Assembly: GCF_018555685.1 (NCBI RefSeq)
Contig: NZ_JAFLWW010000006.1
Location: 124,001 to 188,000, forward strand
Length of the DNA: 64,000 bases
Direction of reading: 5' to 3'
Source of the DNA: Aminobacter anthyllidis
GTDB taxonomy: Bacteria; Pseudomonadota; Alphaproteobacteria; Rhizobiales; Rhizobiaceae
The notes under the pieces were generated by a model that was given only the letters and a program-made list of their open reading frames with translations, did not search any database and had not been told where the DNA came from. Below are positions 9,121 through 32,053 of the stretch, one piece after another. How positions within the stretch are numbered: position 1 is the first letter of the stretch; each line of letters opens with the position of its first letter. The translations under genes were made by a program, and so were the position numbers.

Positions 9121-9124
<4 letters not shown>

Positions 9125-10137: not shown

Positions 10138-10138
10138 G

Positions 10139-12643: not shown

Positions 12644-12659
12644 TGGTCCACCCATTCGC

Positions 12660-13300: not shown

Positions 13301-13302
13301 TA

Positions 13303-14673: not shown

Positions 14674-14828
14674 CGGCCGTTCTCTTTTTCATGCGCGCGG
14701 GCCAGTTCGGCGACGCGTTTGGCCAGTCGTTCGAGCACGGCGATGCCACGGGCGAAATCTGCCGCCTCGCTGGCGCTTGCCTCGGGCGGCAGCGTGATCG
14801 CTTGGGGTTTCGGGGCGGGTGGGGTCAC
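14670..14828 (-). CDS. Small helical protein, candidate AtzG/GatC-like amidase partner
   Basis: A 52-aa product starting at GTG 14828 with AAAGG about eight bases upstream. The sequence has a Pro-rich opening (TPPAPKPQAITLPPEAS) and then one or two amphipathic helices ending ERLAKRVAELARAHEKENGR. It ends in an ATGA overlap with the amidase start, implying coupled translation and an assembly role. GatC and AtzG are short helical proteins that wrap around GatA/AtzE-type amidases and are encoded beside them; this fits in size class, position and helix content, but no sequence match was tested. It is shorter than usual AtzG (about 65-70 aa). Confidence 0.6.
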   Translation of the reverse strand: MTPPAPKPQAITLPPEASASEAADFARGIAVLERLAKRVAELARAHEKENGR

Positions 14829-14861
14829 GTCGCGCGCCTTTCTTGAATGGCCGAGAAATTG

Positions 14862-14886
14862 GAATTGATCAGTATACGTCTGTTAT
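14862..14886. promoter_or_regulatory. Operator-like box, class A, between amidase and FAD oxidase operons
   Basis: TCAGTATAC at 14869-14877 matches the core of the boxes at the window start and at 6320, followed by a similar T-rich tail (TGTTATG). It sits in the 100-base gap between the leftward amidase pair and the rightward oxidase, placed to control both. The left arm is weaker than in the other two copies. Confidence 0.4.
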
Positions 14887-14929
14887 GCATTGTTGGAAGT
14901 GACTGGGTTGGAACCGGTCGGGGGATCAG

Positions 14930-16198: not shown

Positions 16199-16212
16199 GC
16201 AACGAAGGGTCG

Positions 16213-18537: not shown

Positions 18538-18560
18538 GCGCAACATACTGTATGCGCAGT
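18538..18560. promoter_or_regulatory. Weak class B half-palindrome near GGT start
   Basis: The 9-base palindrome ATACTGTAT (18545-18553) reproduces the core of the class B operator, but the outer arms do not match. It lies about 45 bases upstream of the leftward gamma-glutamyltransferase gene and 60 bases from the better copy at 18611. It may be a second, lower-affinity site that lets one regulator span the divergent promoters. Confidence 0.35.
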
Positions 18561-18610: not shown

Positions 18611-18633
18611 ATTTGGTATACAGTATTCTAAAT
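18611..18633. promoter_or_regulatory. Operator-like palindrome, class B, upstream of diiron oxygenase 1
   Basis: ATTTGGTATAC - A - GTATTCTAAAT: two 11-base arms around a central A (18622) with two mismatches. It ends 28 bases before the oxygenase start codon, so a bound protein would block or position RNA polymerase. A nearly identical site precedes the paralogous gene at 28100. Arms of the form TTGGTATAC fit GntR/FCD-type operators in general size and symmetry. Confidence 0.65.
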
Positions 18634-18661
18634 CGAGTTTGAGAATCGACAGGGGATCCGA

Positions 18662-19420
18662 ATGACTGTTGCAATGAACCCGGACGAATTTCGCACCGCG
18701 CTGGAAGATGCCATCAAGGGCAAGAGCGCCAACAAGTCGCCCTTCAGCATGGCATGGGCGAGCGGCAAGCTCAGCCGCGACCATCTCTCGCGTTGGGCCG
18801 AAAACCACTATCACTATGTCGGGCCGTTCGCTGATTACCTCGGCTACATCTACGCCCGCATGCCCGAGCAGTATGTCGAGGCCAAGGATTTCCTGCTCGC
18901 CAACATGTACGAGGAAGAGATCGGCGGCGACCGCCACACCGACCTCCTGATCCGCTTCGGCGAGGCTTGCGGCACATCCCGCGAGCGCATGACCGACCAG
19001 GAGAACATGTCGCCGACGACGCGTGGCCTGCAGAGCTGGTGCTATGCGGTGGCGATGCGCGAAGACCCCATCGTCGCCGTTGCCGGCCTTGTCGTCGGCC
19101 TCGAATCCCAGGTGCCGTCGATCTACCGCAAGCAGACGCCGACCCTGCGCGACAGCTACGGCTTCACCGACGAGGAAGTCGAGTTCTTCGACCTGCACAT
19201 CGTCTCCGACGAGATCCATGGCGAACGCGGCTACCAGATCGTGCTTGAGCACGCCCGCACCGTCGAGATGCAGCAGCGCTGCCTCAGGATCTGCGAGGTC
19301 GGCGCCCAGATGCGGCTGCTCTACACCACGGCACTCTACAACGACTATGTCGCCGGCGACGTGAAGCTTGGGCGGGTGGCGCCGATGGAGCCGGAACTCG
19401 CCGGCATCGGCGGCGTCTGA
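18662..19420 (+). CDS. Heme-oxygenase-like diiron oxygenase (HDO; PqqC/CADD/UndA fold), copy 1
   Basis: A 252-aa all-helical protein of the TenA/PqqC/CADD superfamily. The six expected iron ligands are readable: E85 and H92 in EEEIGGDRH, E148 in VGLESQVP, and H179, D183, H186 in HIVSDEIH. Their spacing (7, 56, 31, 4, 3) closely follows that of the CADD diiron site, which supports an Fe/Fe oxygenase rather than a TenA thiaminase. Such enzymes cleave C-C bonds or oxidise N in small amines and amino acids. It is followed at once by a ferredoxin gene, which suggests external electron supply. GGGGATC precedes ATG 18662. It is about 93% identical to the product at 28100 over the first 231 residues, diverging only in the tail. 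Confidence 0.8.
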   Translation: MTVAMNPDEFRTALEDAIKGKSANKSPFSMAWASGKLSRDHLSRWAENHYHYVGPFADYLGYIYARMPEQYVEAKDFLLANMYEEEIGGDRHTDLLIRFGEACGTSRERMTDQENMSPTTRGLQSWCYAVAMREDPIVAVAGLVVGLESQVPSIYRKQTPTLRDSYGFTDEEVEFFDLHIVSDEIHGERGYQIVLEHARTVEMQQRCLRICEVGAQMRLLYTTALYNDYVAGDVKLGRVAPMEPELAGIGGV

Positions 19421-19429
19421 GCAACGCAC

Positions 19430-19738
19430 ATGCCGACAGTCGTGATCCACAGCAAGGGCGAGGCCTATAGCGGCGAGGTCAAGGAGGACACCAACCTCGT
19501 CGTCCGAGCCGGCATCAAGCAGTTTCCCTATCCGCACCTCGCCTACAAATGCGGCATGGGAAAATGCGGCACCTGCGCCAGCCGCATCCTGGCTGGCGCC
19601 GAACACCTGCCGCCGCCCAACTGGAAGGAAAAGAAGCAGCTCGGCGACAAGATCGACGAGGGCTTCCGGCTCGTCTGCCAGCTGTGGATCAAGCACGACA
19701 TCGAGCTTCGCCAGGAGAAGGTGACGGAGCAGTCCTAA
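19430..19738 (+). CDS. Plant-type [2Fe-2S] ferredoxin 1
   Basis: A 102-aa ferredoxin with cluster ligands C41, C46, C49 and C83 (pattern YKCGMGKCGTC, then LVCQ). The beta-grasp start VVIHSKGEAYSG is typical. It begins nine bases after the oxygenase stop codon, so it is co-transcribed and probably the direct electron donor to the diiron enzyme. The Lys-rich insert between the third and fourth Cys (NWKEKKQLGDK) is longer than in housekeeping ferredoxins and could form the docking face. Confidence 0.88.
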   Translation: MPTVVIHSKGEAYSGEVKEDTNLVVRAGIKQFPYPHLAYKCGMGKCGTCASRILAGAEHLPPPNWKEKKQLGDKIDEGFRLVCQLWIKHDIELRQEKVTEQS

Positions 19739-19837
19739 CCAGAAGATACGCCGCCTGCGTGGCGGCAGGAAAAAACTACGGCCGTGGTGCGCCCGTGCAC
19801 CCGGTCGTGCGAGCAAAAATCAGCATGAGGTGGACAA

Positions 19838-20137
19838 ATGTATGTGGTTCTGACGACCAAGCCGGGCGAGTTCCGGACCGAGATGAGCCCCGGCGTGCAG
19901 CCGGTCGAGACCTACGACTACATCTTCTATGGCCGCAAGCGCGCGAGCTTCACCATCGCGAAACTCACCGACCAGGTGCAGACCCGCATCCGCATCGTCG
20001 AGGATGAGCCGCCACAGATCGAAAACAACGTGCCTTGCAAGCTGTTCGAGAAGTTCGATTCGGTCGAGGAAGCCCGCCACGAACTCAAGACGCTGACCAC
20101 CTACGGCAGCATGGACATCCAGCTCAAGCGCGTCTGA
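19838..20137 (+). CDS. Conserved-looking 99-aa protein between two ferredoxins
   Basis: Not recognised. A soluble protein without signal peptide or membrane segment, preceded by a good GAGGTGG site. It starts with a beta strand (MYVVLTTKPGEFRTE), has a YDYIFYGRKRASFTIAKL segment of alternating pattern, one Cys (NVPCKLF), and a C-terminal helix-strand (SVEEARHELKTLTTYG, then MDIQLKRV). Its place between two ferredoxin genes and downstream of the diiron oxygenase suggests a small effector or coupling subunit, comparable in role only to the small regulatory proteins of multicomponent monooxygenases. That role is inference from position. Confidence 0.75.
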   Translation: MYVVLTTKPGEFRTEMSPGVQPVETYDYIFYGRKRASFTIAKLTDQVQTRIRIVEDEPPQIENNVPCKLFEKFDSVEEARHELKTLTTYGSMDIQLKRV

Positions 20138-20190
20138 CGCCTTGGCCGGCCGCCGTTCCTTCCAGCATCTCCCACGCCCCGAATGCGCCG

Positions 20191-20484
20191 ATGATCACCA
20201 TCACCTTCATCACCAATGACGGCAAGCAGGCGACCGCGCCCGACAACAGCAATCTGCTGCGCGTGTCGCTGCGTGAAAAGGGCGGCATCCCGTTCAAATG
20301 CGGCGGCGGGTTGTGCGGCACCTGCAAGTGCAGGATCGAGACCGGCATCGAGAACACCGACGCGGTCAAGCCCAAGGAACGCAACCACCTGACGCCGGAT
20401 GACCTCGCCGCCGGCTTCCGCATGGCCTGCCAGACCTTCGTGCTCGGCGACATCAGCGTCTCCTGGGTTCCCAAGGCACGCTGA
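20191..20484 (+). CDS. Plant-type [2Fe-2S] ferredoxin 2
   Basis: A 97-aa ferredoxin with ligands C37, C42, C45 and C80 in FKCGGGLCGTCKC and RMACQ; an extra Cys lies at 47. It has the HLTPDDLAAGFRMACQ segment common to ferredoxins of oxygenase systems. The start ATG 20191 is 53 bases after the preceding gene and has no strong ribosome site. Having two unlike ferredoxins in one operon suggests either two electron-transfer steps or one partner for each oxygenase. Confidence 0.87.
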   Translation: MITITFITNDGKQATAPDNSNLLRVSLREKGGIPFKCGGGLCGTCKCRIETGIENTDAVKPKERNHLTPDDLAAGFRMACQTFVLGDISVSWVPKAR

Positions 20485-20529
20485 GACGCATTCTCCGAAA
20501 GCAGAACGACCTCGAAAGCAAGATGACCG

Positions 20530-21984
20530 ATGACTGAGCGACACCTGAACTACATCGCCGGTGAATGGCAGCCCGCTTTCGGCGGCGCCACCTTCGAGGA
20601 CCGCAATCCGGCCGACGAGCGCGACCTGATCGGCCTTTTCCCCGACTCCGCTGCCACCGACGTCGCCGCGGCGGTGGCATCGGTTGCGTCCGCATGGCCG
20701 GCCTGGGCGGCGCAGTCGCCCGAGGTGCGCGCCGACGTGCTGTTCAAGGCCGCCGACCTGATGTCGCTGCGCGCCGACACGATTGCCGCCGAGCTGACCC
20801 GCGAAGAGGGCAAGACGCTCAACGAAGCGCGCAATGAAGCCCGGCGCATCGCCGCCAACTTCCGGCTTTATGCCGGCGAGGCGCTGCGCCTCAACGGCGA
20901 GACCTATCCCAGCGAGGTCGCCCAGCTCGTGCTGTCGCTGCGCCAGCCGGTCGGCGTCGTTGCCGTTATCACGCCGTGGAATTTCCCGCTGTCGATGGCC
21001 GCGCGAAAGCTCGGCCCCGCACTGGCCGCCGGCAACGGCGTCGTCTTCAAGCCGTCCGAGATCACGCCGCTGATGGGCCAGCGCCTGGTCGAGGTGCTGC
21101 TTGATGCCGGCCTGCCGCCGAAGCTCGTCGCCCTCGTCCAGGGCAAGGGCGCCAAGGTCGGCCAGGCGATTACCGCTCAGGCCGGCGTCGATGCGCTGAC
21201 CTTTACCGGCTCTTACGCGGTCGGCAAGCAGATCGCCGCGTCGCTTTCCACCGACACCCGCGTCCAGCTCGAAATGGGCGGCAAGAACGCCACCGTCATC
21301 CTGGCTGACGCCAGCATCGACAAGGCGGTTGCGACGATCGAGCGTGGCGCCTTCGGCCTCACCGGCCAGGCCTGCACCGGCACCAGCCGCGTGCTCGTTG
21401 CCCGCCCGCTCTATGCCGAGCTCGTGGCTCGGCTGGAGAAATCCGCCGCCGCCATCAAGGTCGGCCCGGGCACATCAGAGGGCGTGCAGATGGGGCCGCT
21501 CGCCACCCGCGCGCAATACGACAAGGTGCGCGCCTATGTCGGCATCGCCCGCGACGAGGGCGGCCGGGTCGTCGGCGGCGATGCGCTGCCCGAAACCGAT
21601 CCGGCGCTGGCGCATGGCTATTTCGTCCGCCCGGCGGTTGTTTCCGACCTGCCTGAAAACAGCCGGCTGTGGCGCGAGGAAATCTTCGGACCGGTGGTCG
21701 CCATCCGTCCGATCGACAGTCTCGACGAGGCGATCCGGCTGGCCGACGACACCGAATACGGCCTCGCCGTTTCGCTCGTCACCGGCGACCTGCCATCGGT
21801 GCTGCGCTTTGCCCGCGAGACCCAGCACGGCATCGTCAAGGTCAACAGCCCGACGACGGGCGTTTCGCTCAACGCACCCTTCGGCGGCCTCAAGCATTCG
21901 AGCAACCAGGCGGCAAAGGAGCAGGGCGGCGCCAACGTCATGGACTTCTACAGCCGCATCAAGACCATCTATCTTGGGGCCTGA
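20530..21984 (+). CDS. NAD(P)-dependent aldehyde dehydrogenase
   Basis: A 484-aa ALDH with an intact active site: catalytic Cys282 in GLTGQACTGTSR, general base Glu248 in QLEMGGKNATVI, and the cofactor loop TPWNFPLSMAARKLGPALAAGN. The GQACTGTSR form is typical of the succinate- and 2-oxoglutarate-semialdehyde branch, so a small semialdehyde substrate is plausible. It follows the ferredoxin gene after 45 bases in the same direction. In context it would oxidise the aldehyde released by oxidative C-N or C-C cleavage by the diiron oxygenase. Confidence 0.92.
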   Translation: MTERHLNYIAGEWQPAFGGATFEDRNPADERDLIGLFPDSAATDVAAAVASVASAWPAWAAQSPEVRADVLFKAADLMSLRADTIAAELTREEGKTLNEARNEARRIAANFRLYAGEALRLNGETYPSEVAQLVLSLRQPVGVVAVITPWNFPLSMAARKLGPALAAGNGVVFKPSEITPLMGQRLVEVLLDAGLPPKLVALVQGKGAKVGQAITAQAGVDALTFTGSYAVGKQIAASLSTDTRVQLEMGGKNATVILADASIDKAVATIERGAFGLTGQACTGTSRVLVARPLYAELVARLEKSAAAIKVGPGTSEGVQMGPLATRAQYDKVRAYVGIARDEGGRVVGGDALPETDPALAHGYFVRPAVVSDLPENSRLWREEIFGPVVAIRPIDSLDEAIRLADDTEYGLAVSLVTGDLPSVLRFARETQHGIVKVNSPTTGVSLNAPFGGLKHSSNQAAKEQGGANVMDFYSRIKTIYLGA

Positions 21985-21985
21985 C

Positions 21986-22741
21986 ATGCTTGACAGCCTG
22001 ATGTCGTTGATGCCCGGCAGCTTCGTGCCGGGTCATCTTTTCGGCATGGGCGCGATGGTGTTTGTCGCGGCATTGCTCCAGGGCATAGGCGGGCTCGGCT
22101 TCGCCATGGTCTCGGCGCCGCTCGCCGTACTGTTCTTTCCCGAGATGGCGCCCGGGCCGCTGCTGGTGCTTGGCGCGGGCCTTGCGCTGCTTGGCGTGAT
22201 GCGCGATTTCGACGCCGTCGACTGGGCCTCGGTCACCACGCTGATGGTCGGCCGCGCAGGGGGCACGCTGCTTGCCGGCGCCACGCTAGCCGCACTGCCC
22301 ACCAACGCCTTCTCGATCGTCTTTGCGCTGTTGATCCTCGTCGGCGTCGGCCTCAGCTTTGCCGGCTGGAAGGTCAGGGCCTCGCATCCCAACATGGCGC
22401 TGGCCGGCCTCGCCTCCGGGCTGATGGGCACCATCACCTCGTCGGGCGCGCCGCCCTTCGCCATCGTCATGCAATATGTGCCGCCACGCGAGATGCGGGC
22501 CACCGTCAGCTGCGTCTTCTTCGCCGGCGCCATCCTGTCGCTGCTGATGCTGGCCTATGTCGACCGCTTCACCCTCCCGCAATTCTGGCTCGGCATCCTG
22601 CTGTTTCCGCTGATGCTCGGCGGCTTCTTCGTCTCGAGCCGCTTCGTCGGTTATTTGTCGCCGCGCGGCGTTCGCATGCTGCTGCTCACCATGTCGGGTC
22701 TCGGCGCGCTCGGCATTCTCGCCCGGACGCTGGTGCCATGA
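21986..22741 (+). CDS. TauE/SafE family membrane transporter
   Basis: A 251-aa integral membrane protein with seven to eight helices in two repeats, including LQGIGGLGFAMVSAPLAVLFFP and GLASGLMGTITSSGAPPFAIVM, the internal duplicated motif of this family. Homologues export organic sulfur compounds, sulfite or organic acids; the cargo is not known here. It starts one base after the dehydrogenase gene and ends in an ATGA overlap with the cyclodeaminase homologue, so it belongs to the same operon and may remove a toxic product or take up a substrate. Confidence 0.88.
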   Translation: MLDSLMSLMPGSFVPGHLFGMGAMVFVAALLQGIGGLGFAMVSAPLAVLFFPEMAPGPLLVLGAGLALLGVMRDFDAVDWASVTTLMVGRAGGTLLAGATLAALPTNAFSIVFALLILVGVGLSFAGWKVRASHPNMALAGLASGLMGTITSSGAPPFAIVMQYVPPREMRATVSCVFFAGAILSLLMLAYVDRFTLPQFWLGILLFPLMLGGFFVSSRFVGYLSPRGVRMLLLTMSGLGALGILARTLVP

Positions 22742-23652
22742 TCCACGTCACTGACCAGATGGTCGAAGCCGTGGTCAGCGCCGCCGACGCCCGCGCCGTA
22801 TTGGCCGATGCCTTCCGGCAGTTTGGCCAGGGTGACGCGGCGATGCAGGCGCGCATCCGCAGCGAGGCCGGCGGCGTCAAGCTGTCGACTTTGGGCGCCG
22901 TCATCCCCGGCCAGGAGGTTCTGGGCGCCAAGGTCTACAGCACGATCAAGGGCCAGTTTTCGTTTGTCATCCTGCTGTTCTCGTCGGTCGACGGGCGCGC
23001 GCTCGCCACTTTCGACGCCGGCGCCATCACCCGACTCCGGACCGCCGGCTGCTCGGTCATCGCGGCCCAGCATCTCGCGCGTCCTGAGGCGTCGACACTT
23101 GCCGTCTTCGGATCGGGACCGCTCGGCCGGGCGCACGCTATGCAACTCGCCGAGGTCTTCCCGCTCAGGCAGGTGCTGCTCGTCAGCCGCTCGTCCGACC
23201 CGGCTCTGGCCGCCGAACTGGAAGCCGCTTGCGGCATCCCGACCCGCATGGCTTTGGCCAACGAAGCGGCCGCCGAAGCCGACATCGTCGTCACAGCCTC
23301 TCGCTCCGCAACCGCACTGTTTCCTGGCGACCTGCTCAAGCCCGGTTGCTTCGCCGCCGCCGTCGGCTCGAGCCTGCCCAACACCCGCGAGCTCGACGAC
23401 CGGGCGATGGCGCGTGCTTCGCTCGTCGCCGTCGAGTGGCGCGACCAGAGCCTGCGCGAGGCCGGCGACCTCGTGCTTGCCGATCCGGAAGCGTTGCCTC
23501 GGGACAAGATGGTCGAACTCGGCGAGCTTCTCGCCGGCAAGGCGCGCGGCCGCGCGACCGACGACGAGATCACCATCTACAAGTCGGTCGGCGTTGGCTT
23601 GCAGGACATCGCGCTGGCGGGCCTGGCCTACAGGCGGATTGTCGGCGGCTAG
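22738..23652 (+). CDS. Ornithine cyclodeaminase/mu-crystallin family protein
   Basis: A 304-aa NAD(P)-binding protein. The Rossmann motif FGSGPLGRAHAMQL, the N-terminal LSTLGAVIPGQEVLGAKVYS and the conserved DAGAITRLRTAG segment are family hallmarks. Members act as ornithine cyclodeaminases, ketimine reductases, or alanine/N-alkyl amino acid dehydrogenases. In this operon a ketimine or cyclic imine formed from an oxidised amine would be a fitting substrate. It is the last gene of the operon that starts with diiron oxygenase 1. Confidence 0.88.
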   Translation: MIHVTDQMVEAVVSAADARAVLADAFRQFGQGDAAMQARIRSEAGGVKLSTLGAVIPGQEVLGAKVYSTIKGQFSFVILLFSSVDGRALATFDAGAITRLRTAGCSVIAAQHLARPEASTLAVFGSGPLGRAHAMQLAEVFPLRQVLLVSRSSDPALAAELEAACGIPTRMALANEAAAEADIVVTASRSATALFPGDLLKPGCFAAAVGSSLPNTRELDDRAMARASLVAVEWRDQSLREAGDLVLADPEALPRDKMVELGELLAGKARGRATDDEITIYKSVGVGLQDIALAGLAYRRIVGG

Positions 23653-23778
23653 CTACGATCACGCCAAGCGACTTGTACCAGTCGCGATGATCACAAGGCA
23701 CGTTGCCATGACGGCATCTGTTGATCGGCCTCGGCGGTCAAGCGCAGAGCAGCCGCTCCGGGCGTGTGATCGGCTTCA

Positions 23779-24084
23779 TTACTGGTTCTTGAAGCAGCGC
23801 AGCTCGACTTCGTTGCGATAGTCTTCGACAGCGCGCTGCTGCATTGGCGTGGTCGAGAATCGTGGATGCTCATAGGCCGCCAGAATTTCATCCCGCGTGC
23901 CGGCGCCGGGCGCCTTCTCCAGGTGCAACTGGCCGCTCAGCGGAAGACCTGCCTGCCGAGCGGACATGATGGTTGCCGCCCAGGACCCCCTCAGGTGGCA
24001 AATCTGGTCCGGGCTGTGGTTGTTGGACAACGCTTGCGCGGGAAGGAGCGCCAACAGCAAGATGGTAAGAACTGTCCTGCGCAC
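23779..24084 (-). CDS. Small secreted hypothetical protein
   Basis: Not recognised. From GTG 24084 it gives about 101 aa: a signal peptide (RRTVLTILLLALLPAQALS), then a mature domain with one Cys pair (QICHL and ELRCF) and a PMQQRAVEDYRNEVELRC end. An AGGAGG lies 11 bases upstream of this GTG; the alternative ATG 24117 has no ribosome site. The Cys spacing suggests one disulfide in the periplasm. It is the last of three small exported-protein genes on this strand near the subtilase operon. Confidence 0.6.
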   Translation of the reverse strand: MRRTVLTILLLALLPAQALSNNHSPDQICHLRGSWAATIMSARQAGLPLSGQLHLEKAPGAGTRDEILAAYEHPRFSTTPMQQRAVEDYRNEVELRCFKNQ

Positions 24085-24137
24085 TGCTGGGCAAACCTCC
24101 TGTAACGGCGAGCGCATATTGGGAAAGTCTGGTGCGC

Positions 24138-24482
24138 TCAGCGCCCCTGCAGCACGCGGATCAGCTTGCTGTTGTCGGCTGTGCTGGAATCGAGGTTGCG
24201 GTAGTCCTGGTAGGTGATGCGGTTGCTGGCCATGCCGTTGATCATGCGCTTGCAGAATGTTTGCGCGTAGGTGCTCGGATTGATGTTGAACACCGCGGCC
24301 ATCTCGGCCTTGTCCTTGGCCGAGCGTGCGTTCTCGTCCTTGATGCAGCTCGCCATGATCTCGCGCTTCAGCGAGGGACTGCCGCTGAGGGCCGTCTGCG
24401 CGGTCTTGTATTCGCCTTGCGACATGGTCGTGCAGCCCGCGACAATTGCGGAAAGGCCAAGCAAGATTACCCTACGGATCAT
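24138..24482 (-). CDS. Small putative lipoprotein
   Basis: About 114 aa from ATG 24482. The start MIRRVILLGLSAIVAGC has a lipobox (VAGC), so a lipid-anchored periplasmic protein is expected. The mature part carries two further Cys residues (MASCIKDENARS and TFCKRM) in an otherwise helical, Lys-rich sequence of about 95 residues. No family recognised. It lies about 55 bases upstream of the small secreted gene on the same strand; both could share a transcript. An in-frame ATG at 24491 adds three residues. Confidence 0.7.
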   Translation of the reverse strand: MIRRVILLGLSAIVAGCTTMSQGEYKTAQTALSGSPSLKREIMASCIKDENARSAKDKAEMAAVFNINPSTYAQTFCKRMINGMASNRITYQDYRNLDSSTADNSKLIRVLQGR

Positions 24483-24712
24483 GTCGTGCATCCAGATGCG
24501 AAAATGATTGAAGCAAATGATCAGAACAGGTCGCCTACTGCAACAGGTCAGGCGCGCTCGTCAACTGACAGTTGAAAATAATGTGGTTCAGCGGTTTGCA
24601 TGAATCCAAAACGATCGCACGCTCAGTGTTATTTAGAATAAGCTATATTAGAAAATATTGAGCGATCTATGCCTCGTCTTGTCGCAGCGCGACCGGCGGC
24701 GTAGCTATGCGA

Positions 24713-24970
24713 TCACCAGCCCAGCTGGCTTCCGCAGACGATGAGGTAGCATTCGGCGTAACGCTTGTACTCCGGCGTGCCGTATGCCGGCATCGTACCG
24801 CTGTCGTTGTAGCTGTCGAGCAAGCTGGCGCACATGACCTTCTCGAATGGCGGCCAGGAACTGACGGCCAGGGCTTGTGGCGACGCCAGCGCAATGGCGG
24901 CGAGGATGAAGCATCCCAGGCTGGCAGCTGCAAAAAGAGAAGCGTTGCGCATGGAGATGACCATGTACAT
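24713..24970 (-). CDS. Small secreted hypothetical protein
   Basis: An 85-aa product (79 aa from the ATG at 24952) with a clear signal peptide (LFAAASLGCFILAAIALASPQALA) and a short mature part with three Cys (VMCASLL, AECYLIVCGS). Not recognised. The three small genes at 23779-24970 share size, export signals and Cys pairs but no obvious sequence repeats. The 24492-24712 gap is AT-rich and could hold a promoter for the leftward lipoprotein gene. Confidence 0.6.
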   Translation of the reverse strand: MYMVISMRNASLFAAASLGCFILAAIALASPQALAVSSWPPFEKVMCASLLDSYNDSGTMPAYGTPEYKRYAECYLIVCGSQLGW

Positions 24971-25137
24971 GGTCGCAACATCGCCGGCAATGGGAGAGCA
25001 ATGTCATGATGAACGGAGTAATTCATCGCCGCGATGGTGAAAGCACCAAGATGCGTGGCAGACCAAGCGACGCGGCACAAGGATGAGTGTCGGCTGAGAG
25101 CGCCGCTGGCCTCGCGCAGTTCTGCGCCACGCTTTGT

Positions 25138-26649
25138 CTATTCCTTCGTTGCCTCAGCCGCCTTGGTGTTGATCAGGCCGAAGCCGAAGTCGGTGTCGCG
25201 GCCCTTGTCGCCGAGGTCGGTGGCGGTGCTGGCAAGCGCCTTTTCGATCGAGTCTGCGCTGCGCTCCGGTTCGTTGTGCAGCAGGTTGGCGATCGCGCCG
25301 CTGACGACGGCCGCGGCAAACGACGTGCCGGTGACGAGGTCGGTGCCGCCGCCGACAGGGGCCATCAGGTCGACGCCGGGCGCCGAGATGTAGACGTAGG
25401 GGCCGCGGTTGGCCTGCTTCATGATCGCGTCCTTGGCGTCCGTAGCTGTGACCGCGATCACCCCCTTGTAGGCGGCGGGATAGCCATAGGGCGCGCCCGG
25501 GCCGTTGTTGCCGGCGGCAGCGACAAGGATCATGCCGCGTGCGCGGGCGCCCCGGCTGGCCTGCTCCAGCAGCGCGTTCTTGGGCCCGACAAAACTCATA
25601 TTGACGATCTGGACGTTCTGCTCGGCGGCCCAGTCGAGGGCGTTGAGAATGATCTCCATTGTCGACTTGCCGCCTTCGAACGCGCGGGCGTGGAAAATCT
25701 TCGACCCCGGCGCCATGCCCTTGAAGTCGCCGGTGCCTGATATCAGCCCGGCCACCGAGGTGGCGTGGTCGCGGGCGGTGACTGCAACGCCCGGCATGGC
25801 GTCGAAGCTTTGCGCGATGACGCCCTTGAGCGCCGGATGGGTTTCGTCGATCGCCGTATCGATGACCGCGACATTGACGTTTTCGCCATTCGCCGCCGCC
25901 TCGTCGAGCGAGATGCGCTGGAAGGCGAAGCTGGGCGCTGCCGCTGCCTGCTGCAGCTCGTAGATGTGGTTGGGCTCGCGCGCGCTGGTGCGGCCATCGC
26001 CGGCCAGTTGCGCCAGCACCACGCCGACCGGACGGCCGTCGGGAATGCCGAAGCGCACGAGGCTGGTGCCGAGCAAGGCCGACTGGCGCTGCGAGCGGAT
26101 TTCAAGGCCATAGGCGGCGGCGAGGGCCTGCGCATCGGCCGCGCCGCCATCGACTGTCACCAGCACCTCGTCGGGCACGAAGGCGCCCGAGATGGCACGC
26201 GGCGGCGCGGTGATGGCGGGGCCGGGCGGCGCAGCGTCGGCTGCAGGAGGTGTCGGCGGCGGAGATCCGGCCTGCCCGCCACCGCCGGTAGGGGCGGCAC
26301 CGCCGGCGGGATCGCGCAGCGGGTTGGGCGTCGGCACTGGCGTTGCCGGCTGGCCGCCCGAGGCGACGCCGGGAAAGTCGCCGGGATTGGGAAACAGGTC
26401 GACGATCAGCTCGGGCAGGCCGACGGCGCCGGGCAGGCCACTGCCGCCCGAGGCACCACCCGGGGCGGCGCCGCCAGGTGCCGGGCCACCCGGTTGCAGG
26501 CAATTGGCGTTGCCGGCCGCAGTCGTCTGGTTGAGGCAGTCGAGCTGCTGCGGCGTCAGGCTGGGGTCGTTGGTCTGGGCGAAAACAGGCGTGGCGGCGA
26601 ACAATGCCGCCGCCAGCACAAGCCGTGCAAATCGCCTCGACGTCATCAT
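25138..26649 (-). CDS. Secreted subtilisin-like serine protease (S8)
   Basis: A 503-aa exported protease. It has a signal peptide (1-25), a Pro/Gly-rich low-complexity region (about 52-150), an inhibitor-like prodomain (about 157-235), then the catalytic domain. The triad is Asp264 (AVIDTAIDETHP), His295 (ARDHATSVAG) and Ser443 (GTSFAAAVVSG), with the oxyanion Asn in AAAGNNGPG (about 381). Its ATG overlaps the stop of the anti-sigma gene in an ATGA junction, so it is the third gene of a sigma/anti-sigma/protease operon. Linked synthesis suggests that the protease takes part in or is an output of the ECF pathway. Confidence 0.92.
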   Translation of the reverse strand: MMTSRRFARLVLAAALFAATPVFAQTNDPSLTPQQLDCLNQTTAAGNANCLQPGGPAPGGAAPGGASGGSGLPGAVGLPELIVDLFPNPGDFPGVASGGQPATPVPTPNPLRDPAGGAAPTGGGGQAGSPPPTPPAADAAPPGPAITAPPRAISGAFVPDEVLVTVDGGAADAQALAAAYGLEIRSQRQSALLGTSLVRFGIPDGRPVGVVLAQLAGDGRTSAREPNHIYELQQAAAAPSFAFQRISLDEAAANGENVNVAVIDTAIDETHPALKGVIAQSFDAMPGVAVTARDHATSVAGLISGTGDFKGMAPGSKIFHARAFEGGKSTMEIILNALDWAAEQNVQIVNMSFVGPKNALLEQASRGARARGMILVAAAGNNGPGAPYGYPAAYKGVIAVTATDAKDAIMKQANRGPYVYISAPGVDLMAPVGGGTDLVTGTSFAAAVVSGAIANLLHNEPERSADSIEKALASTATDLGDKGRDTDFGFGLINTKAAEATKE

Positions 26650-27308
26650 CCAGCCGGTTTCCTTCCTGCCGTTACCGTGTCGGCAAAGGGTGCCGCCGCG
26701 ATGACGCCGACGATGCGATCGTAGTCGGCGACCGTCTCGGCCGGGATGGCGATGCGGAACACGCCGCTTGCCGTCGGGCCGTCGATGATCGAAGCGCCAT
26801 TGTCGCCGAGCAGGCTGGCGATGTCGGCCATCTTGGCATCCGGCTTGAACGTCACCAGCGCGAAGGGCAGCTTCGCCTGGTCCTCGCCGGTCCCGGCAAC
26901 CTGGACATCGTTGCCACGGCCACCGGGCTCGAGCACCGACTGGACCATGACCAGCGCCAGCAAAGCCGCCGCTGCTCCCCAGGCGACGCCCACCGGCAGG
27001 CCCATGAAACGTTCCCAGACGCGCGACAGCAGCGATTGTGCCTGCGGCTCGCGAACCGGACCGGCCTCGGTGTCGAGCAGCTTGGAGAAGCGGCTCAGCG
27101 CATCGGCGGGCGGCCGGATCGCCTCGTTGGAGGCCATCGTGCCGGAGAATTCGGCCTCGGCGGCTTCAAGGGCAGCGGGTGCCGCCGGATCGCTGGCGAG
27201 CCAGTCTTCGACAGTTGCCAGTTCCGACCCTTCGAGCGTGCCGTTCAGATAGAACGGCAGTAGCGTTTCGATCTCGTCGCGGCGCGACATCTTTTCGGCA
27301 GCGCTCAT
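26646..27308 (-). CDS. Membrane-anchored anti-sigma factor
   Basis: A 220-aa protein with a cytoplasmic N-terminal helical domain (RRDEIETLLPFYLNGTLEGSE, typical of anti-sigma domains lacking the zinc motif). One membrane helix lies near residues 103-122 (GVAWGAAAALLALVMVQSVL), and a periplasmic C-terminal domain follows. That domain (LPFALVTFKPDAKMADIASL ... GVFRIAIPAETVADYDRIV) has the beta-alpha-beta pattern of subtilase propeptide-type domains. ATG 27308 overlaps the sigma factor stop (ATGA), and its own stop overlaps the protease start, so all three are translationally coupled. Confidence 0.82.
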   Translation of the reverse strand: MSAAEKMSRRDEIETLLPFYLNGTLEGSELATVEDWLASDPAAPAALEAAEAEFSGTMASNEAIRPPADALSRFSKLLDTEAGPVREPQAQSLLSRVWERFMGLPVGVAWGAAAALLALVMVQSVLEPGGRGNDVQVAGTGEDQAKLPFALVTFKPDAKMADIASLLGDNGASIIDGPTASGVFRIAIPAETVADYDRIVGVIAAAPFADTVTAGRKPAG

Positions 27309-27877
27309 GGCCAGCCCCTGTCGTATCCGGCGGCCTTCAAGGCTTCGCCGAGTTTCTTGCGGGCATAAAACATCCGCGTCTTCACGGTGGCGACCGGAAT
27401 GTCGAGCACCTCGCCGATCTCGGTGACCGATTTGCCATGGTAATAGGCCAGGTCGATGACAGTGCGATGCTCCTCGGCAAGCGCATCGACGAAGCGGCGT
27501 AGGGCTGCACCCTTGTCCGTCTTCATCGTCGCCACTTCGGGCGTGTCGTTGTCGTCGGGCACCGCCGCCGCATCGTCGTCGTCGAGCCACTCTTCCTTGC
27601 GCTTGCGCAGCGACGACAGCGCCTTGAAACGCGCTATGCCGAGCAGCCAGGTCGAGACTTCCGAGCGGCCTTCGAATTTCGGCGCCTGGCGCCACAATTC
27701 GAGAAACACTTCATTGGCTACGTCATCCGCCATCGCTTCCGACCCCGTCTGGCGCGCCACGAAACGGTAGACCCGTGCGTGGTGCCGCGTGAACAGGAGC
27801 CGCAAAGCGGCGCGGTCGCCGTTCGCGACGCGGCTCACGAGATCACGATCGGACATGGGGTCTGATGCGATGTTCAT
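27305..27877 (-). CDS. ECF sigma factor
   Basis: A 190-aa sigma-70-family factor of the extracytoplasmic group. Region 2 is readable (ARVYRFVARQTGS, then ADDVANEVFLELWR), followed by STWLLGIARFKALSSLRKR (region 2.4). After an acidic linker comes region 4 (LAEEHRTVIDLAYYHGKSV and IPVATVKTRMFYARKKLGEA). No sigma-1.1 domain is present. It is first in the operon with its anti-sigma factor and a subtilase. A GTG-started form from 27937 is possible but lacks a ribosome site. No EcfG-type promoter was identified directly upstream. Confidence 0.9.
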   Translation of the reverse strand: MNIASDPMSDRDLVSRVANGDRAALRLLFTRHHARVYRFVARQTGSEAMADDVANEVFLELWRQAPKFEGRSEVSTWLLGIARFKALSSLRKRKEEWLDDDDAAAVPDDNDTPEVATMKTDKGAALRRFVDALAEEHRTVIDLAYYHGKSVTEIGEVLDIPVATVKTRMFYARKKLGEALKAAGYDRGWP

Positions 27878-28042
27878 GGCCGGTGCTACCGCCGGGCTCC
27901 TGTCTGCTTGGTCGTTGTTGGCCGCAAAAAGGTTCACCGGAATGTTTCGGATGAAAGAAAGCTAGCCGAACTTCCGCGGCATGGCCAGTCCGCCGCGCCA
28001 CCACACTGTCGGCATCCTTTACCGGCCCTTGCGCTCAAGCTA

Positions 28043-28065
28043 TTTTGGTATACAGTATTCCAAAA
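28043..28065. promoter_or_regulatory. Operator-like palindrome, class B, best copy
   Basis: TTTTGGTATAC (28043-28053), central A (28054), then GTATTCCAAAA (28055-28065): a 23-base dyad with a single mismatch. It ends 34 bases before the start codon of diiron oxygenase 2 and matches the site at 18611 closely. This copy defines the consensus for the regulon. Its symmetry and length fit a dimeric winged-helix regulator; the GntR/FCD gene four genes downstream is the natural candidate. Confidence 0.7.
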
Positions 28066-28099
28066 TGGCTTTGCAGACGATATCTCAAGGGAGCACTGA

Positions 28100-28828
28100 A
28101 TGACCGTTGCAATGAATCCGGACGAGTTCCGCACGGCGCTCGAAAACGCCATCAAGGGCAAGAGCGCCAACAAGTCGCCATTCAGCGTCGGCTGGGCGAG
28201 CGGCAAGCTCAGCCGCGAGCATCTCGCCCGCTGGGCCGAGAACCACTACCACTATGTCGGGCCGTTCGCCGATTACCTCGGCTACATCTACGCCCGCATG
28301 CCGGAGGGCTACACCGAGGCCAAGGATTTCCTGCTCGCCAACATGTATGAGGAAGAGATCGGCGGCGATCGCCACACCGACCTGCTCGTCCGCTTCGGCG
28401 AAGCCTGCGGCACGACGGGCGACAGGATGCGCGACCCCGACAACATGTCGCCGACGACCCGCGCCCTGCAGAGCTGGTGTTATGCGGTGGCGATGCGCGA
28501 AGACCCCATCGTCGCGGTTGCCGGCCTCGTCGTCGGTCTCGAATCCCAGGTGCCGTCGATCTACCGCAAGCAGACGCCGACGCTGCGCGACAAGTATGGC
28601 TTCACCGACGAGGAGGTCGAGTTCTTCGACCTGCACATCGTCTCTGACGAGATCCATGGCGAGCGCGGCTACCAGATCGTTCTGGAGCATGCCCGCACGG
28701 TCGAGATGCAGCAGCGCTGCCTCAAGATCTGCGAGGTCGGCGCCCAGATGCGGCTGCTCTACACCACGGCACTCTACAACGACTATGTCGCGGCCGAACT
28801 GCCGCTCGAGGAACTCCTCGCCGCCTGA
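28100..28828 (+). CDS. Heme-oxygenase-like diiron oxygenase (HDO), copy 2
   Basis: A 242-aa paralogue of the product at 18662 with 17 differences counted over the first 231 residues (about 93% identity). All six predicted iron ligands (E85, H92, E148, H179, D183, H186) are unchanged. Six of the differences cluster at residues 106-115, a surface-type loop, and the C-terminal tail is replaced by a shorter acidic one (AAELPLEELLAA). Its operon supplies the reductase while copy 1 supplies the ferredoxins, so the two loci are complementary. AAGGGAGC lies about eight bases before ATG 28100. Confidence 0.82.
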   Translation: MTVAMNPDEFRTALENAIKGKSANKSPFSVGWASGKLSREHLARWAENHYHYVGPFADYLGYIYARMPEGYTEAKDFLLANMYEEEIGGDRHTDLLVRFGEACGTTGDRMRDPDNMSPTTRALQSWCYAVAMREDPIVAVAGLVVGLESQVPSIYRKQTPTLRDKYGFTDEEVEFFDLHIVSDEIHGERGYQIVLEHARTVEMQQRCLKICEVGAQMRLLYTTALYNDYVAAELPLEELLAA

Positions 28829-28921
28829 TCCCGCCATAGTGGGGAGCGCGCGGGGCGGCAAGCCTGCCGCGTGCGTTCCCCCAGTGGCCCAAAATACCAA
28901 CCATTGCCGGACGAAAACGAC

Positions 28922-29401
28922 GTGAAACAGGTCCTGAAACTCGAACTTGAAGAAGCCCGTGTGATGGTGGCCGCGGCGGTCGCCAAGGCGCTGGAGCTCA
29001 ACGTTCCAGAAACCGTCTGCATCGCCGATGACGGCGGCTATCCGATCGCGCTGGAGCGCATGAACGGCGCGCGCGTCACTGGCCCGCAGATCGCCTGGAA
29101 CAAGGCCTTCACCGCCGCCGGCCACAAGCGCTCGACGCATCTGTTCACCACCCCGCCGAATGGCCCGGCGCTGCCCGGCAACGAAGCCTTCGGCATCCAG
29201 CTCAGCTTCGAGGGCCGCTTCGCTGCCTTCGTCGGAGGCTTTCCCGTCGTCGTCGACGGCGAGGTGATCGGCGGCGTCGGCCTGAGCGGCGGAAACGGCG
29301 AGCAAGACATTGCCTGCGGCGTCGCGGCACTCGCCGCATTGCAGGCCATGCTGGAACCCTTGGGGCACAAGGTCATGGTCCAGGCCGACATCAAGAAGTG
29401 A
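28922..29401 (+). CDS. GlcG/HbpS-like (DUF336) protein
   Basis: A 159-aa protein from GTG 28922. The order of motifs fits the GlcG/HbpS family: LELEEARVMVAAAVAKALEL, then ADDGGYPIALERM, a central TGPQIAWNKAFTAA, and the C-terminal VDGEVIGGVGLSGGNGEQD. Members bind heme, cobalamin or small ligands, or occur as accessory subunits next to oxidoreductases; their chemistry is poorly defined. It lies between the second diiron oxygenase and the reductase and overlaps the longest reading of the latter, hence one operon. A role in iron or cofactor handling for the oxygenase is an inference. Confidence 0.8.
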   Translation: MKQVLKLELEEARVMVAAAVAKALELNVPETVCIADDGGYPIALERMNGARVTGPQIAWNKAFTAAGHKRSTHLFTTPPNGPALPGNEAFGIQLSFEGRFAAFVGGFPVVVDGEVIGGVGLSGGNGEQDIACGVAALAALQAMLEPLGHKVMVQADIKK

Positions 29402-29442
29402 CCGAAGCGGCAGCGCCGCATCCAACCGTTCAGGAGACATGG

Positions 29443-30456
29443 ATGGACCATGTTGTGCGCGTCCTCGAAACCGAGGACCAGTTTACTGTTGGCTCGGAAG
29501 AATCCGTGCTGATGGCGGCGATCCGCCAGGGCGTTCAGCTGCTGCATGACTGCACCGAAGGCGGCTGCGGCACCTGCCGTATCAGGCTGATGGAAGGCTG
29601 CGTCCGCTACGAGGAATACCCGCTGGCGCTGACGCCGGAGGACGAGGAGGAGGGCTTCGCGCTCGCCTGCCAGGCGCGGCCCGAAAGCGACCTGCTGATC
29701 TCGACCGAACGGCCGATGGAACCGTGCTCCGACCCCGAACGGTATACCGCGACCGTGGAATCGGTCCGCCATCTCGGCCGCGACGTCGTCCACCTGACGC
29801 TTGCCATCCCCGGCGCCGAGCAACTGGTCTACCGGCCCGGGCAGTATCTCAACCTGCTGCTCGCCGACGGCAACAAGCGCAGCTTCTCCATGGCTTCGGT
29901 GCCCAACGGCAAGACCGTCGACCTGCACATCCGCCGCGTCCGCGACGGCCATTTCACCGGCGGCCAGCTGCTGCGGCTCAGCCCCGGCGACAGGCTCGAC
30001 GTCGAACTGCCGCACGGCCTGTTCTGCTGCCGCAAGGAGGATTTCAGGCCCATCCTGATGGTGGCGACCGGCACCGGCCTGGCGCCGATCAAGAGCATAC
30101 TGGAATCGCTGATGGACGATCCCGATTGTCCGCCCGTGTCGCTCTACTGGGGCATGCGCAGCGAGGAGGACCTCTACCTGCACGACGAGATCCAGTCCTG
30201 GGGCGAGCGCCTGTGCGACTTCCAGTACATCCCGGTGCTGTCGCGGCCTGGCCCGTCATGGACAGGCCGGCAGGGTTACGTCCAGGAGGTCGCCACCGAA
30301 GACATCGGCGACTTCTCCGAGCACGCCATCTACATGTGCGGCTCGCCCAACATGATTTCGAGCGCCAAAAAACTGTTCGTCGAGCGCGGCGCCAATCCCG
30401 GCTTCATCTACGCCGACGCCTTCAATTTCCAGCACACGCTCGTGCCGGCCGAATAG
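29443..30456 (+). CDS. 2Fe-2S/FAD NAD(P)H-dependent oxygenase reductase
   Basis: A 337-aa electron-transfer protein. An N-terminal plant-type ferredoxin domain has ligands C37, C42, C45 and C76. It is followed by an FNR module with the FAD motif RSFS (146-149), the nucleotide-binding GTGLAP (210-215) and the terminal CGSPNMI. This is the layout of reductases for phenol, benzoate or alkane oxygenases. It would move electrons from NAD(P)H to ferredoxins 1/2 or straight to the diiron oxygenases. ATG 29443 is preceded by CAGGAGA; a GTG 45 bases upstream overlaps the GlcG stop and is less likely. Confidence 0.9.
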   Translation: MDHVVRVLETEDQFTVGSEESVLMAAIRQGVQLLHDCTEGGCGTCRIRLMEGCVRYEEYPLALTPEDEEEGFALACQARPESDLLISTERPMEPCSDPERYTATVESVRHLGRDVVHLTLAIPGAEQLVYRPGQYLNLLLADGNKRSFSMASVPNGKTVDLHIRRVRDGHFTGGQLLRLSPGDRLDVELPHGLFCCRKEDFRPILMVATGTGLAPIKSILESLMDDPDCPPVSLYWGMRSEEDLYLHDEIQSWGERLCDFQYIPVLSRPGPSWTGRQGYVQEVATEDIGDFSEHAIYMCGSPNMISSAKKLFVERGANPGFIYADAFNFQHTLVPAE

Positions 30457-30478: not shown

Positions 30479-32053
30479 ATGGGCAACATGGAAATCTCGG
30501 TCGAAACGCCCGCCGGCCGCCTCGCCGGGCGACGGCATGACGGCGTCGACCATTTCCTCGGCATTCCCTATGCGGCCGCCCCCGTCGGTCCTTTCAAGCT
30601 GCGCTCGCCCAGGCCGGCGCCGAACTGGGCCGGCATGCGGCCGGCCGATCATGTTGGTGCTGCCGCGCCGCAACATCTCGCGGGCAGCCAGACCTGGCTC
30701 AACGAGCCGATCGCGCGCATGGACGAGGATTGCCTGACGCTGAATGTCTGGGCGCCTGCCGATGCCAGCGATGCCCCCGTCCTGGTCTGGTTCCATGGCG
30801 GGGCGACGCGCAACGGCCATGGGGGCGCTGCCGCCTGCGACGGTTTTCGCCTCGCAAGCGAGCACGGTATCGTCGTCGTCACGGTGAACTACCGGCTCGG
30901 GCCGCTGGGTGGTCTGGCGCATCCTGATCTCACCGACCCGGAAACCGGGACCTGCGCCAACTGGGGCCTGCAGGACAAGATCGCGAGCCTGAGCTGGGTG
31001 CGCGAGAGCATCTCAGCCTTCGGCGGCGATCCCCGCAAGGTGACGATAGCAGGCCAATCTTCAGGTGCTGCCAACGTCGTCTTGATTGCCCAGAATCCTG
31101 ATTGCCGCAGCCTGTTCCGCGCCGTCATCGCCCAGAGCCCGCCGCTGTTCCAGCCGCCGATGTTCGTCGGGCTCGACGCCGCGGTCGAATACACCGAGGC
31201 GGTGGCAGCGTCCCTCGGCACCTCGGTCGCGGGCTTGCGCGATCTCGACGGCACCGACCTCGTCCGCCGCGAAGCCGCATTGCTGCGCGACGCCGATTTC
31301 GCCAGGCGGTTCCCCAGGCCGCGCACCGCGCCGACGCTCGACGGGGCGCTCGTCCACGCCTGGCCGCATGATGGCGTGCTCGCCGACGTGCCGCTGCTGA
31401 TCGGCTTCACCCGCGACGAGGCAAGATTCTGGTACGACCTCGCTCTGCCCGACGGCACCAGGCTTTCGGCGCTTTCGCCTCCCGGGGCCGGCGCGCCGGT
31501 CGACGTCGCGCTCGCGCGGCTGATCGCGCTGCATTATCCCTTCGAACCGGCGCCGTCGCCCGCGGCGATCCTCGCCGGCTACCGCGCCACTATGCCCAAC
31601 GCCGGCTCCGATGCGATCTGGCTGGCGATCTATTCCGACCTCGTCTTCCGCGCGCCGATCTGGCGTTGCGCTGCCCGGCACGCGCGGCGCGGCCCGCCCG
31701 TCTTTCTCTACGACTTCGCCTGGCCGCTCGCGGTTACCGGCGGCACGCCTCACGCAGCCTGCGTGCCATTCGTCTTCGGCACCCATCGCCATCCGCATCT
31801 TGCCGCCAAGATCGGCGCGAATGAGACCGCCGATGGCCTTTCCGGGGCCATGATGGCTGCCTGGGCGGCATTCGTCCGTGATGGTACGCCGGCAACGCCA
31901 ACTCTCGATTGGCCGGCCCTCAACCCCGGGTTGCCAGCCGACACTTCTGCTGCAATGACAATGGATGGCAACGGTATGCTGTTTGGGCCGCTTTATGGCG
32001 CAGCGCGGCTCGCTTCCTGGCCGGCGATCGGCATTTTGGATGGCGCGGATTGA
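30479..32053 (+). CDS. Type B carboxylesterase
   Basis: A 524-aa alpha/beta hydrolase of the carboxylesterase type B group. The nucleophile elbow is GQSSGAA (Ser at about residue 192), preceded by the oxyanion-loop motif WFHGGATRNGHGG. The acid is probably the Glu in GFTRDEARFW and the base the His in CVPFVFGTHRHPH. N-terminal FLGIPYAAAPVGPFKLRSP is a family hallmark. No signal peptide is present. It may hydrolyse an ester or carbamate form of the substrate before oxidation. The start could be ATG 30479 or 30488. It is the last enzyme gene before the regulator. Confidence 0.88.
   Translation: MGNMEISVETPAGRLAGRRHDGVDHFLGIPYAAAPVGPFKLRSPRPAPNWAGMRPADHVGAAAPQHLAGSQTWLNEPIARMDEDCLTLNVWAPADASDAPVLVWFHGGATRNGHGGAAACDGFRLASEHGIVVVTVNYRLGPLGGLAHPDLTDPETGTCANWGLQDKIASLSWVRESISAFGGDPRKVTIAGQSSGAANVVLIAQNPDCRSLFRAVIAQSPPLFQPPMFVGLDAAVEYTEAVAASLGTSVAGLRDLDGTDLVRREAALLRDADFARRFPRPRTAPTLDGALVHAWPHDGVLADVPLLIGFTRDEARFWYDLALPDGTRLSALSPPGAGAPVDVALARLIALHYPFEPAPSPAAILAGYRATMPNAGSDAIWLAIYSDLVFRAPIWRCAARHARRGPPVFLYDFAWPLAVTGGTPHAACVPFVFGTHRHPHLAAKIGANETADGLSGAMMAAWAAFVRDGTPATPTLDWPALNPGLPADTSAAMTMDGNGMLFGPLYGAARLASWPAIGILDGAD

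What the first reader, a model, noticed from the sequence alone, without database searches (positions are those of the whole stretch)
18611..30456. Split multicomponent oxygenase system built on a CADD/PqqC-fold diiron enzyme
Two operons together encode a heme-oxygenase-like diiron protein (two copies), two [2Fe-2S] ferredoxins, a 2Fe-2S/FAD reductase, a GlcG-like protein, an unknown 99-residue protein and an aldehyde dehydrogenase. Seen: all six iron-ligand residues with CADD-like spacing, all ferredoxin Cys sets and reductase motifs. Known: characterised HDO enzymes are mostly single-component or self-sacrificing. A dedicated NAD(P)H-reductase-ferredoxin chain would make this a true multicomponent HDO monooxygenase, a type I cannot match to a described pathway. 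Inference: the reductase of locus 2 serves the ferredoxins of locus 1.
Basis: partly seen in the sequence, partly recalled or inferred. Interest (0 to 1): 0.85.

Follow-up and report, generated by a model that had tools for sequence, protein, structure and literature searches.

The report
Multi-part diiron oxygenase gene system
A soil bacterium carries a conserved gene set that looks like an oxygen-using iron enzyme of the heme-oxygenase-like family with its own electron carriers and an unknown partner protein, a many-part layout that I found described for no enzyme of this family.

Summary
The genes are there as described. HDO keeps the six dimetal-ligand positions of CADD (30 of 30 aligned rows) but lacks both self-sacrifice residues. 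In 73 of 77 relative loci HDO lies within about 6 kb of ferredoxin A, a 99-aa protein (p99) and ferredoxin B, in that order; the other four are three contig ends and a second HDO copy. In two whole-genome samples p99 occurred only in HDO genomes (3 of 3, 6 of 7); the exception keeps both ferredoxins. The reductase is less universal (41 of 77). Both window operons carry the same rare palindrome upstream of HDO, so they look co-regulated. Best reading: a multicomponent HDO oxygenase, NAD(P)H -> reductase -> ferredoxin(s) -> diiron HDO, for catabolism of an unknown, perhaps N-containing, compound. One HDO-reductase pair is published (MboAB, PMC13185094); a review (PMC13108848) says HDOs studied so far need no protein effector, and p99 is a candidate for one. 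Activity, complexes and substrate are untested.

The parts
18613..18631 (.). palindromic operator-like site TTGGTATACAGTATTCTAA before HDO1 (core starts 44 bp before the start codon)
   Evidence: GNATACNGTATNC has 2 matches in the window, 0 in each of 100 shuffles
18545..18553 (.). further ATACTGTAT core between GGT and HDO1
18662..19420 (+). HDO1, heme-oxygenase-like diiron protein, 252 aa; ligand positions E85 H92 E148 H179 D183 H186
19430..19738 (+). ferredoxin A, [2Fe-2S] type, 102 aa
19838..20137 (+). p99, 99-aa protein of no known family; confident predicted fold without PDB match
20191..20484 (+). ferredoxin B, [2Fe-2S] type
20530..21984 (+). aldehyde dehydrogenase; best NCBIfam models are alpha-ketoglutaric semialdehyde / 2,5-dioxovalerate dehydrogenases, below their cut-offs
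21989..22741 (+). TauE/SafE-family permease
22738..23652 (+). ornithine cyclodeaminase / mu-crystallin family protein
17023..18495 (-). gamma-glutamyltransferase-family protein, divergent from HDO1
28045..28063 (.). palindromic operator-like site TTGGTATACAGTATTCCAA before HDO2 (core starts 50 bp before the start codon)
28100..28828 (+). HDO2, second copy, 89% identical to HDO1
28871..29401 (+). GlcG/HbpS-like protein
29398..30456 (+). [2Fe-2S]/FAD/NAD(P)H reductase, nearest NCBIfam models BenC and MmoC; overlaps GlcG by 4 nt
30479..32053 (+). carboxylesterase family protein
32147..32788 (+). GntR/FCD regulator, the likely binder of the palindrome (inference)

Best explanation
It is a multicomponent oxygenase whose catalytic part is a heme-oxygenase-like diiron protein instead of a ferritin-like hydroxylase or a Rieske enzyme. 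Proposed flow: NAD(P)H -> reductase (29398-30456) -> ferredoxin A and/or B -> diiron HDO, which activates O2 and oxidises a small molecule over many turnovers. p99 most likely binds HDO or a ferredoxin as a coupling or effector subunit. ALDH oxidises an aldehyde made downstream; the GntR protein controls both operons through the shared palindrome. Shown by sequence: the parts, the ligand set, the loss of the self-sacrifice pair, the conserved neighbourhood, the shared palindrome. Inferred: electron route, turnover, role of p99, GntR as the binder, catabolic purpose. The substrate is unknown; hydrolases of C-N bonds in several versions of the cluster (GGT family, amidase, isochorismatase, amidohydrolase) and the transporters suggest a nitrogen-containing amide or heterocycle, about 1 in 3.
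For: Ligands: E85, H92, E148, H179, D183, H186 align with CADD E81, H88, E142, H174, D178, H181 (ligand numbers recalled) and are invariant in 30 of 30 rows. CADD Y27 and K152 align with invariant S29 and Q158. HDO model (pLDDT only 73.6) matches PqqC (E 6.1e-8) and CADD (E 3.1e-7, TM 0.74/0.86) in Foldseek. FdA, p99 and FdB with HDO in 73 of 77 loci, always in that order on one strand (73 of 73), 66 of 73 with the trio within 2 kb of HDO, farthest 6.1 kb; of the other four, L013, L074 and L075 end at a contig edge and L007 is a second copy on the contig of L004, which has all three. Three of the six plasmid records with 80-90% HDO were looked at: 3 of 3 hold FdA, p99, FdB and reductase. Whole genomes: HDO in 3 of 297, p99 in the same 3, own genome included; HDO at 485 bits or more in 7 of 300 and p99 in 6 of these, the centre genome included; the seventh has HDO, GlcG, FdA, FdB without p99. 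p99 in 0 of 19 genomes that hold only distant HDO relatives. Reductase (>=200 bits) in 41 of 77 loci. Palindrome: 56 of 72 ATACNGTAT sites lie in the 2.2% of sequence up to 400 bp upstream of HDO, 155-fold; 64 of 72 lie up to 400 bp upstream of some cluster gene.
Against: No activity, iron or binding data. Reductase not found in the fetched stretch in 36 of 77 loci, among them the Bradyrhizobium and Acetobacteraceae/Roseomonadaceae ones, and no homologue at E<=1e-30 in 11 of 31 genomes, so there the donor must be another enzyme. Two ferredoxins are unexplained. One true HDO locus lacks p99. The 77 loci come from the best 80 of 486 hits, rich in Achromobacter and Bradyrhizobium, so they are not independent; the whole-genome samples hold few positives. 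46 of 77 loci have no exact palindrome core upstream of HDO. Catabolic neighbours differ between taxa (ALDH 60, TauE 41, OCD 19, GGT 10, carboxylesterase 2 of 77), so no single pathway emerges. Distant relatives (43% identity and lower) had no ferredoxin, p99 or reductase match in 4 of 4 stretches looked at (4 of the 19 genomes).
Confidence: 0.74

Rival explanations
1. A tetrapyrrole/heme-handling system: a true heme-oxygenase-type enzyme fed by ferredoxin and reductase (as in plants and cyanobacteria, recalled), with GlcG/HbpS as heme-binding helper.
For: Heme oxygenase fold; ferredoxin feeds plastid heme oxygenases (recalled); the GlcG family is Pfam 'Haem degrading protein HbpS-like'.
Against: Six dimetal-ligand positions are invariant; PqqC and CADD match better than the heme oxygenase HmuO (1.5e-4); neighbours include ALDH, esterase, hydrolases and a GntR regulator. 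I did not search for heme-uptake genes.
Confidence: 0.06
2. A biosynthetic or self-modifying HDO (pABA-synthase or PQQ-synthase like) whose ferredoxin neighbours serve other enzymes.
For: Best solved-sequence matches are CADD and other 4-aminobenzoate synthases, then PqqC.
Against: Sacrificial Tyr and Lys absent; scores far below the curated cut-offs for CADD (97.3 of 200 bits) and PqqC (53.5 of 240); co-conservation with ferredoxins.
Confidence: 0.08
3. The oxygenase is HDO plus the two ferredoxins (and p99), but electrons come from a general house-keeping reductase; the BenC-like reductase of operon 2 is accessory or serves something else.
For: Reductase missing from the fetched stretch in 36 of 77 loci and without homologue at E<=1e-30 in 11 of 31 genomes. 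In some Bradyrhizobium loci (7 loci in the clustering) a reductase with another domain order lies several kb away, beyond a GGDEF/EAL gene in L033.
Against: Reductase shares operon and palindrome with HDO2 here; present in 41 of 77 loci; some of the 36 are split clusters like this one, with the reductase elsewhere in the genome (L004, L005, L018).
Confidence: 0.2
4. p99 is not an effector but a substrate- or product-binding or assembly protein, or it is dispensable.
For: One true HDO locus lacks it (L175); its fold matches no solved effector.
Against: It lies between the two ferredoxin genes in 73 of 73 loci that hold all three.
Confidence: 0.5

Closest known systems
MboA-MboB acetylenase pair of mangotoxin biosynthesis (PMC13185094; section 8 and found passages read)
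   Same: HDO with a dedicated NADH-dependent [2Fe-2S]/flavin reductase needed for full turnover
   Different: No ferredoxin or p99-like part in the section read; it tailors a peptide in a biosynthetic pathway; sequence relation to the present HDO was not tested
CADD / NePabS pABA synthases (1rcw, 8va9; PMC11965152, passages read)
   Same: Same fold, same six ligand positions, nearest solved sequences
   Different: Self-sacrificing Tyr27 and Lys152 absent here; 24-25% identity; ferredoxin neighbours
PqqC pyrroloquinoline-quinone synthase
   Same: Same fold; best Foldseek match
   Different: PqqC works without metal (recalled); NCBIfam score 53.5 of 240 needed
Bacterial multicomponent monooxygenases (sMMO, toluene monooxygenases; recalled)
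   Same: Layout: oxygenase + reductase + ferredoxin and, if p99 is an effector, a small cofactor-free protein
   Different: The oxygenase is heme-oxygenase-like, not ferritin-like; p99 gave no fold match to a solved effector

Membership tests
[quoted passage not shown]
   Pfam PF14518 9.9e-36; Foldseek 75 PDB matches with E<=0.001, PqqC, CADD, UndA, FlcD and HrmI among the 50 shown; model pLDDT 73.6
[quoted passage not shown]
   E85 H92 E148 H179 D183 H186 invariant, 30 of 30 rows
[quoted passage not shown]
   needs protein
CADD-type self-sacrificing pABA synthase | sacrificial Tyr27 and Lys152 | tested here: not met
   S29 and Q158, invariant in 30 of 30 rows
CADD-type self-sacrificing pABA synthase | NCBIfam TIGR04305 score above cut-off 200 | tested here: not met
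   97.3 bits
PqqC | NCBIfam TIGR02111 score above cut-off 240 | tested here: not met
   53.5 bits
HDO with dedicated redox partner (MboAB kind) | reductase encoded with HDO | tested here: met
   operon 2 here; 41 of 77 loci
HDO with dedicated redox partner (MboAB kind) | partner required for turnover | not testable with these tools
   needs assay
Bacterial multicomponent monooxygenase | ferritin-like diiron hydroxylase | tested here: not met
   HDO fold instead
Bacterial multicomponent monooxygenase | MmoB/TmoD-type effector fold | tested here: not met
   p99 model pLDDT 91.7; Foldseek PDB: no match with E<=0.001, best E 0.17, antibody entries in the 50 rows shown of 1805 with E<=10

The most novel reading that the evidence does not exclude
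A convergent 'multicomponent monooxygenase' built on the heme-oxygenase fold: catalytic HDO, two [2Fe-2S] ferredoxins, an NAD(P)H reductase, and p99 as the first protein effector that gates O2 activation in an HDO, with a fold not matched by solved structures, working as the entry enzyme of an undescribed catabolic pathway in alpha- and betaproteobacteria.
Probability: 0.28. Interest if true: 0.88.

Novelty: new variant of a known kind. Interest (0 to 1): 0.71.

Why it matters
Published HDOs come mainly from natural-product biosynthesis, and the 2026 review (PMC13108848; section 5 read) states that HDOs studied to date need no protein effector as the ferritin-like multicomponent enzymes do. 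A widespread HDO family, strongly conserved (mean pairwise difference 0.108 in 68 loci, against 0.205-0.433 for GlcG, ferredoxins and p99), with fixed ferredoxin partners would show that this fold also acquired a full electron-transfer chain, probably for multi-turnover catabolism. It gives a ready set of parts for a reconstitution test.

Tried and rejected
Substrate by guilt of association: I looked at gene neighbours in several taxa; they differ too much to name one. Further palindrome copies in the own genome lie before a DapB-like gene, between katG-like and LysR-like genes, and before a sodium-symporter-like gene; these names are my reading of the letters, not family searches, and none settles the pathway. 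Literature searches listed no paper that I recognised as describing this gene set. The 510-aa transporter-like family found in 49 of 77 loci has no Pfam or NCBIfam match and no believable solved relative. p99 gave no believable PDB relative by sequence (best E 0.23) or fold. The HDO model is of modest quality, so I did not use its active-site geometry. Complexes could not be predicted with the tools. The 'viral' fold library was not run. Correlated distances among HDO, ferredoxins, p99 and GlcG (0.70-0.86) fit joint inheritance but shared species ancestry was not controlled for.
Full report
What is there. The window lies in contig C27 of genome G000; its HDO1 is 99% identical to that of Aminobacter carboxidus. 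Operon 1: HDO1, ferredoxin A, p99, ferredoxin B, ALDH, TauE permease, ornithine-cyclodeaminase-family protein. Operon 2: HDO2, GlcG, reductase, carboxylesterase, GntR regulator.

Active site. From the printed HMMER alignment with CADD, the six CADD ligand positions (numbers recalled) fall on E85, H92, E148, H179, D183 and H186; they are invariant in 30 of 30 rows and fall in columns at least 98% conserved among 68 distinct sequences. The two residues that CADD sacrifices, Tyr27 and Lys152 (PMC11965152, passages read), are S29 and Q158 here, both invariant. So this is not a CADD-type pABA synthase, and its scores are far under the curated cut-offs for CADD and PqqC. The AlphaFold model (pLDDT 73.6) matches PqqC and CADD best.

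Conserved gene set. A scan of genome contigs found 486 relatives; the best 80 gave 77 loci. Loci with a strong tblastn match, of 77: HDO 77, ferredoxin A 74, p99 73, ferredoxin B 73, GlcG 70, GntR 64, ALDH 60, reductase 41, TauE 41, OCD 19, GGT 10, carboxylesterase 2. Identity to the window proteins in these matches: HDO 85-100%, FdB 67-100, GlcG 70-98, FdA 57-98, p99 39-98, reductase 43-94, ALDH 44-97. Where FdA, p99 and FdB are all present (73 loci) they are in that order on one strand in 73 of 73; the trio starts a median 0.8 kb from HDO, over 2 kb in 7, at most 6.1 kb. The four loci without the full trio are three contig ends (L013, L074, L075) and L007, a second HDO copy on the contig of L004. 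These loci are not independent: many are Achromobacter and Bradyrhizobium.

Whole-genome samples. 297 genomes of the own order gave HDO in 3 (own genome included; E limit 1e-60) and p99 in the same 3 (E limit 1e-10). 300 genomes of the order of an Achromobacter genome that was itself chosen for its HDO and is counted in gave a match at E<=1e-10 in 16; 7 of these score 485 bits or more, all other matches 120 or less; p99 in 6 of the 7 and in none of the other 293 at E<=0.001. The exception (L175) has HDO, GlcG, ferredoxin A and ferredoxin B, the two ferredoxin genes adjoining, without p99. In 385 genomes of the class, 20 had an HDO relative at E<=1e-10; apart from the own genome 0 of the 19 had p99. 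Of these 19 I looked at four with about 10 kb flanks: no ferredoxin, p99 or reductase match at E<=1e-3, but the nearest (L113, 43% identical HDO) keeps a GlcG (57%) and a GntR (55%) relative and has a divergent Rieske-domain gene.

Reductase. Of the 31 genomes searched, 8 have a copy at 55% identity or more (in one of them split into two pieces), 12 only relatives with a best identity of 31-39%, and 11 none at E<=1e-30. In Aminobacter loci L004 and L005 and in L018 the reductase is in the genome but outside the fetched stretch, so 41 of 77 is a lower bound.

Regulation. The same palindrome, TTGGTATACAGTATTC(T/C)AA, stands before both HDO starts, its core 44 and 50 bp upstream. GNATACNGTATNC occurs twice in the window, never in 100 shuffles. 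In the 77 loci the core ATACNGTAT occurs 72 times; 56 of these lie within 400 bp upstream of an HDO gene, in 31 loci, a 155-fold enrichment. Of the other 16, 8 lie up to 400 bp before GGT/GlcG, TauE, GntR, SDR or FdB genes (the FdB one is inside the p99 gene region and may be chance), and 8 are in four Variovorax loci. There they lie before an SsuA/NMT1-type binding-protein gene, followed by ABC transporter genes and a RutB-like isochorismatase (read in L021 and L028). Six Achromobacter loci that I printed lack the exact core and carry a near-match (TAGACGGTATACAA) at about -72. This supports one regulon over both operons. That the GntR protein binds it is inference. 46 of 77 loci have no exact site upstream of HDO.

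Evolution. HDO is the slowest part (mean pairwise difference 0.108 in 68 loci, against 0.289 FdA, 0.433 p99, 0.239 FdB, 0.205 GlcG) and the distances correlate (0.70-0.86), as for genes inherited together; shared species ancestry alone could give that too. The Aminobacter copies fall in two groups that stay with their operon type; the copy-2 group is well supported (98/97), the copy-1 group less (88/94); the two Kaistia copies are identical over the residues used.

p99. AlphaFold with 42 rows gives pLDDT 91.7, pTM 0.82, a mostly beta fold with one helix. Foldseek against PDB gives nothing better than E 0.17, antibody entries in the 50 rows shown. The window's p99 has a single cysteine, so it is no iron-sulfur protein by itself. 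A small protein fixed between two ferredoxin genes recalls the effector proteins of multicomponent monooxygenases; this is analogy, not homology.

Against the literature. The review PMC13108848 (section 5 read; [quoted passage not shown] the search listing counts no 'ferredoxin' in it. PMC13185094 (section 8 read) presents MboAB as perhaps the first characterised dedicated HDO-redox partner pair. Nine searches of the open-access library showed me no paper on an HDO with its own ferredoxins or on this gene set; for most hits I saw only the listing, and most subscription papers are not held.

Verdict. The multicomponent idea is well supported for HDO plus ferredoxins (with p99 and GlcG), and partly for the reductase. 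Substrate and activity remain open.

Noticed in passing
L113 (G066:C1:524000-543900), about 8929-11640: A 43% HDO relative with GlcG and GntR relatives but no ferredoxin or p99 match; a Rieske-domain gene lies divergently upstream. It may be a sister system with another electron donor.
   Followed up: partly
L060:13567-15099, and a member in 48 other loci: A 510-aa membrane-protein-like family without Pfam, NCBIfam or believable PDB match, in 49 of 77 loci; candidate transporter of the unknown substrate.
   Followed up: partly
L021:2400-6060 (Variovorax): Two copies of the palindrome core before an SsuA/NMT1-type ABC transporter and a RutB-like isochorismatase; a regulon member that may tell the substrate.
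   Followed up: partly
window 7082-16977: Dipeptide-type ABC transporter genes, an amidase, a D-amino-acid-dehydrogenase-like protein and an SDR next to the GGT gene; similar transporter genes near HDO in a Mangrovicoccus (L010) and a Noviherbaspirillum (L063) locus.
   Followed up: partly
G000:C1:525524, C12:654833, C27:122979: Three more copies of the palindrome elsewhere in the genome, one about 1 kb before the window start.
   Followed up: partly
L085-L112 and other distant HDO relatives: HDO-like genes with about 25-35% identity, several in one genome (G157, G255, G886), some next to SDR genes; not studied.
   Followed up: no
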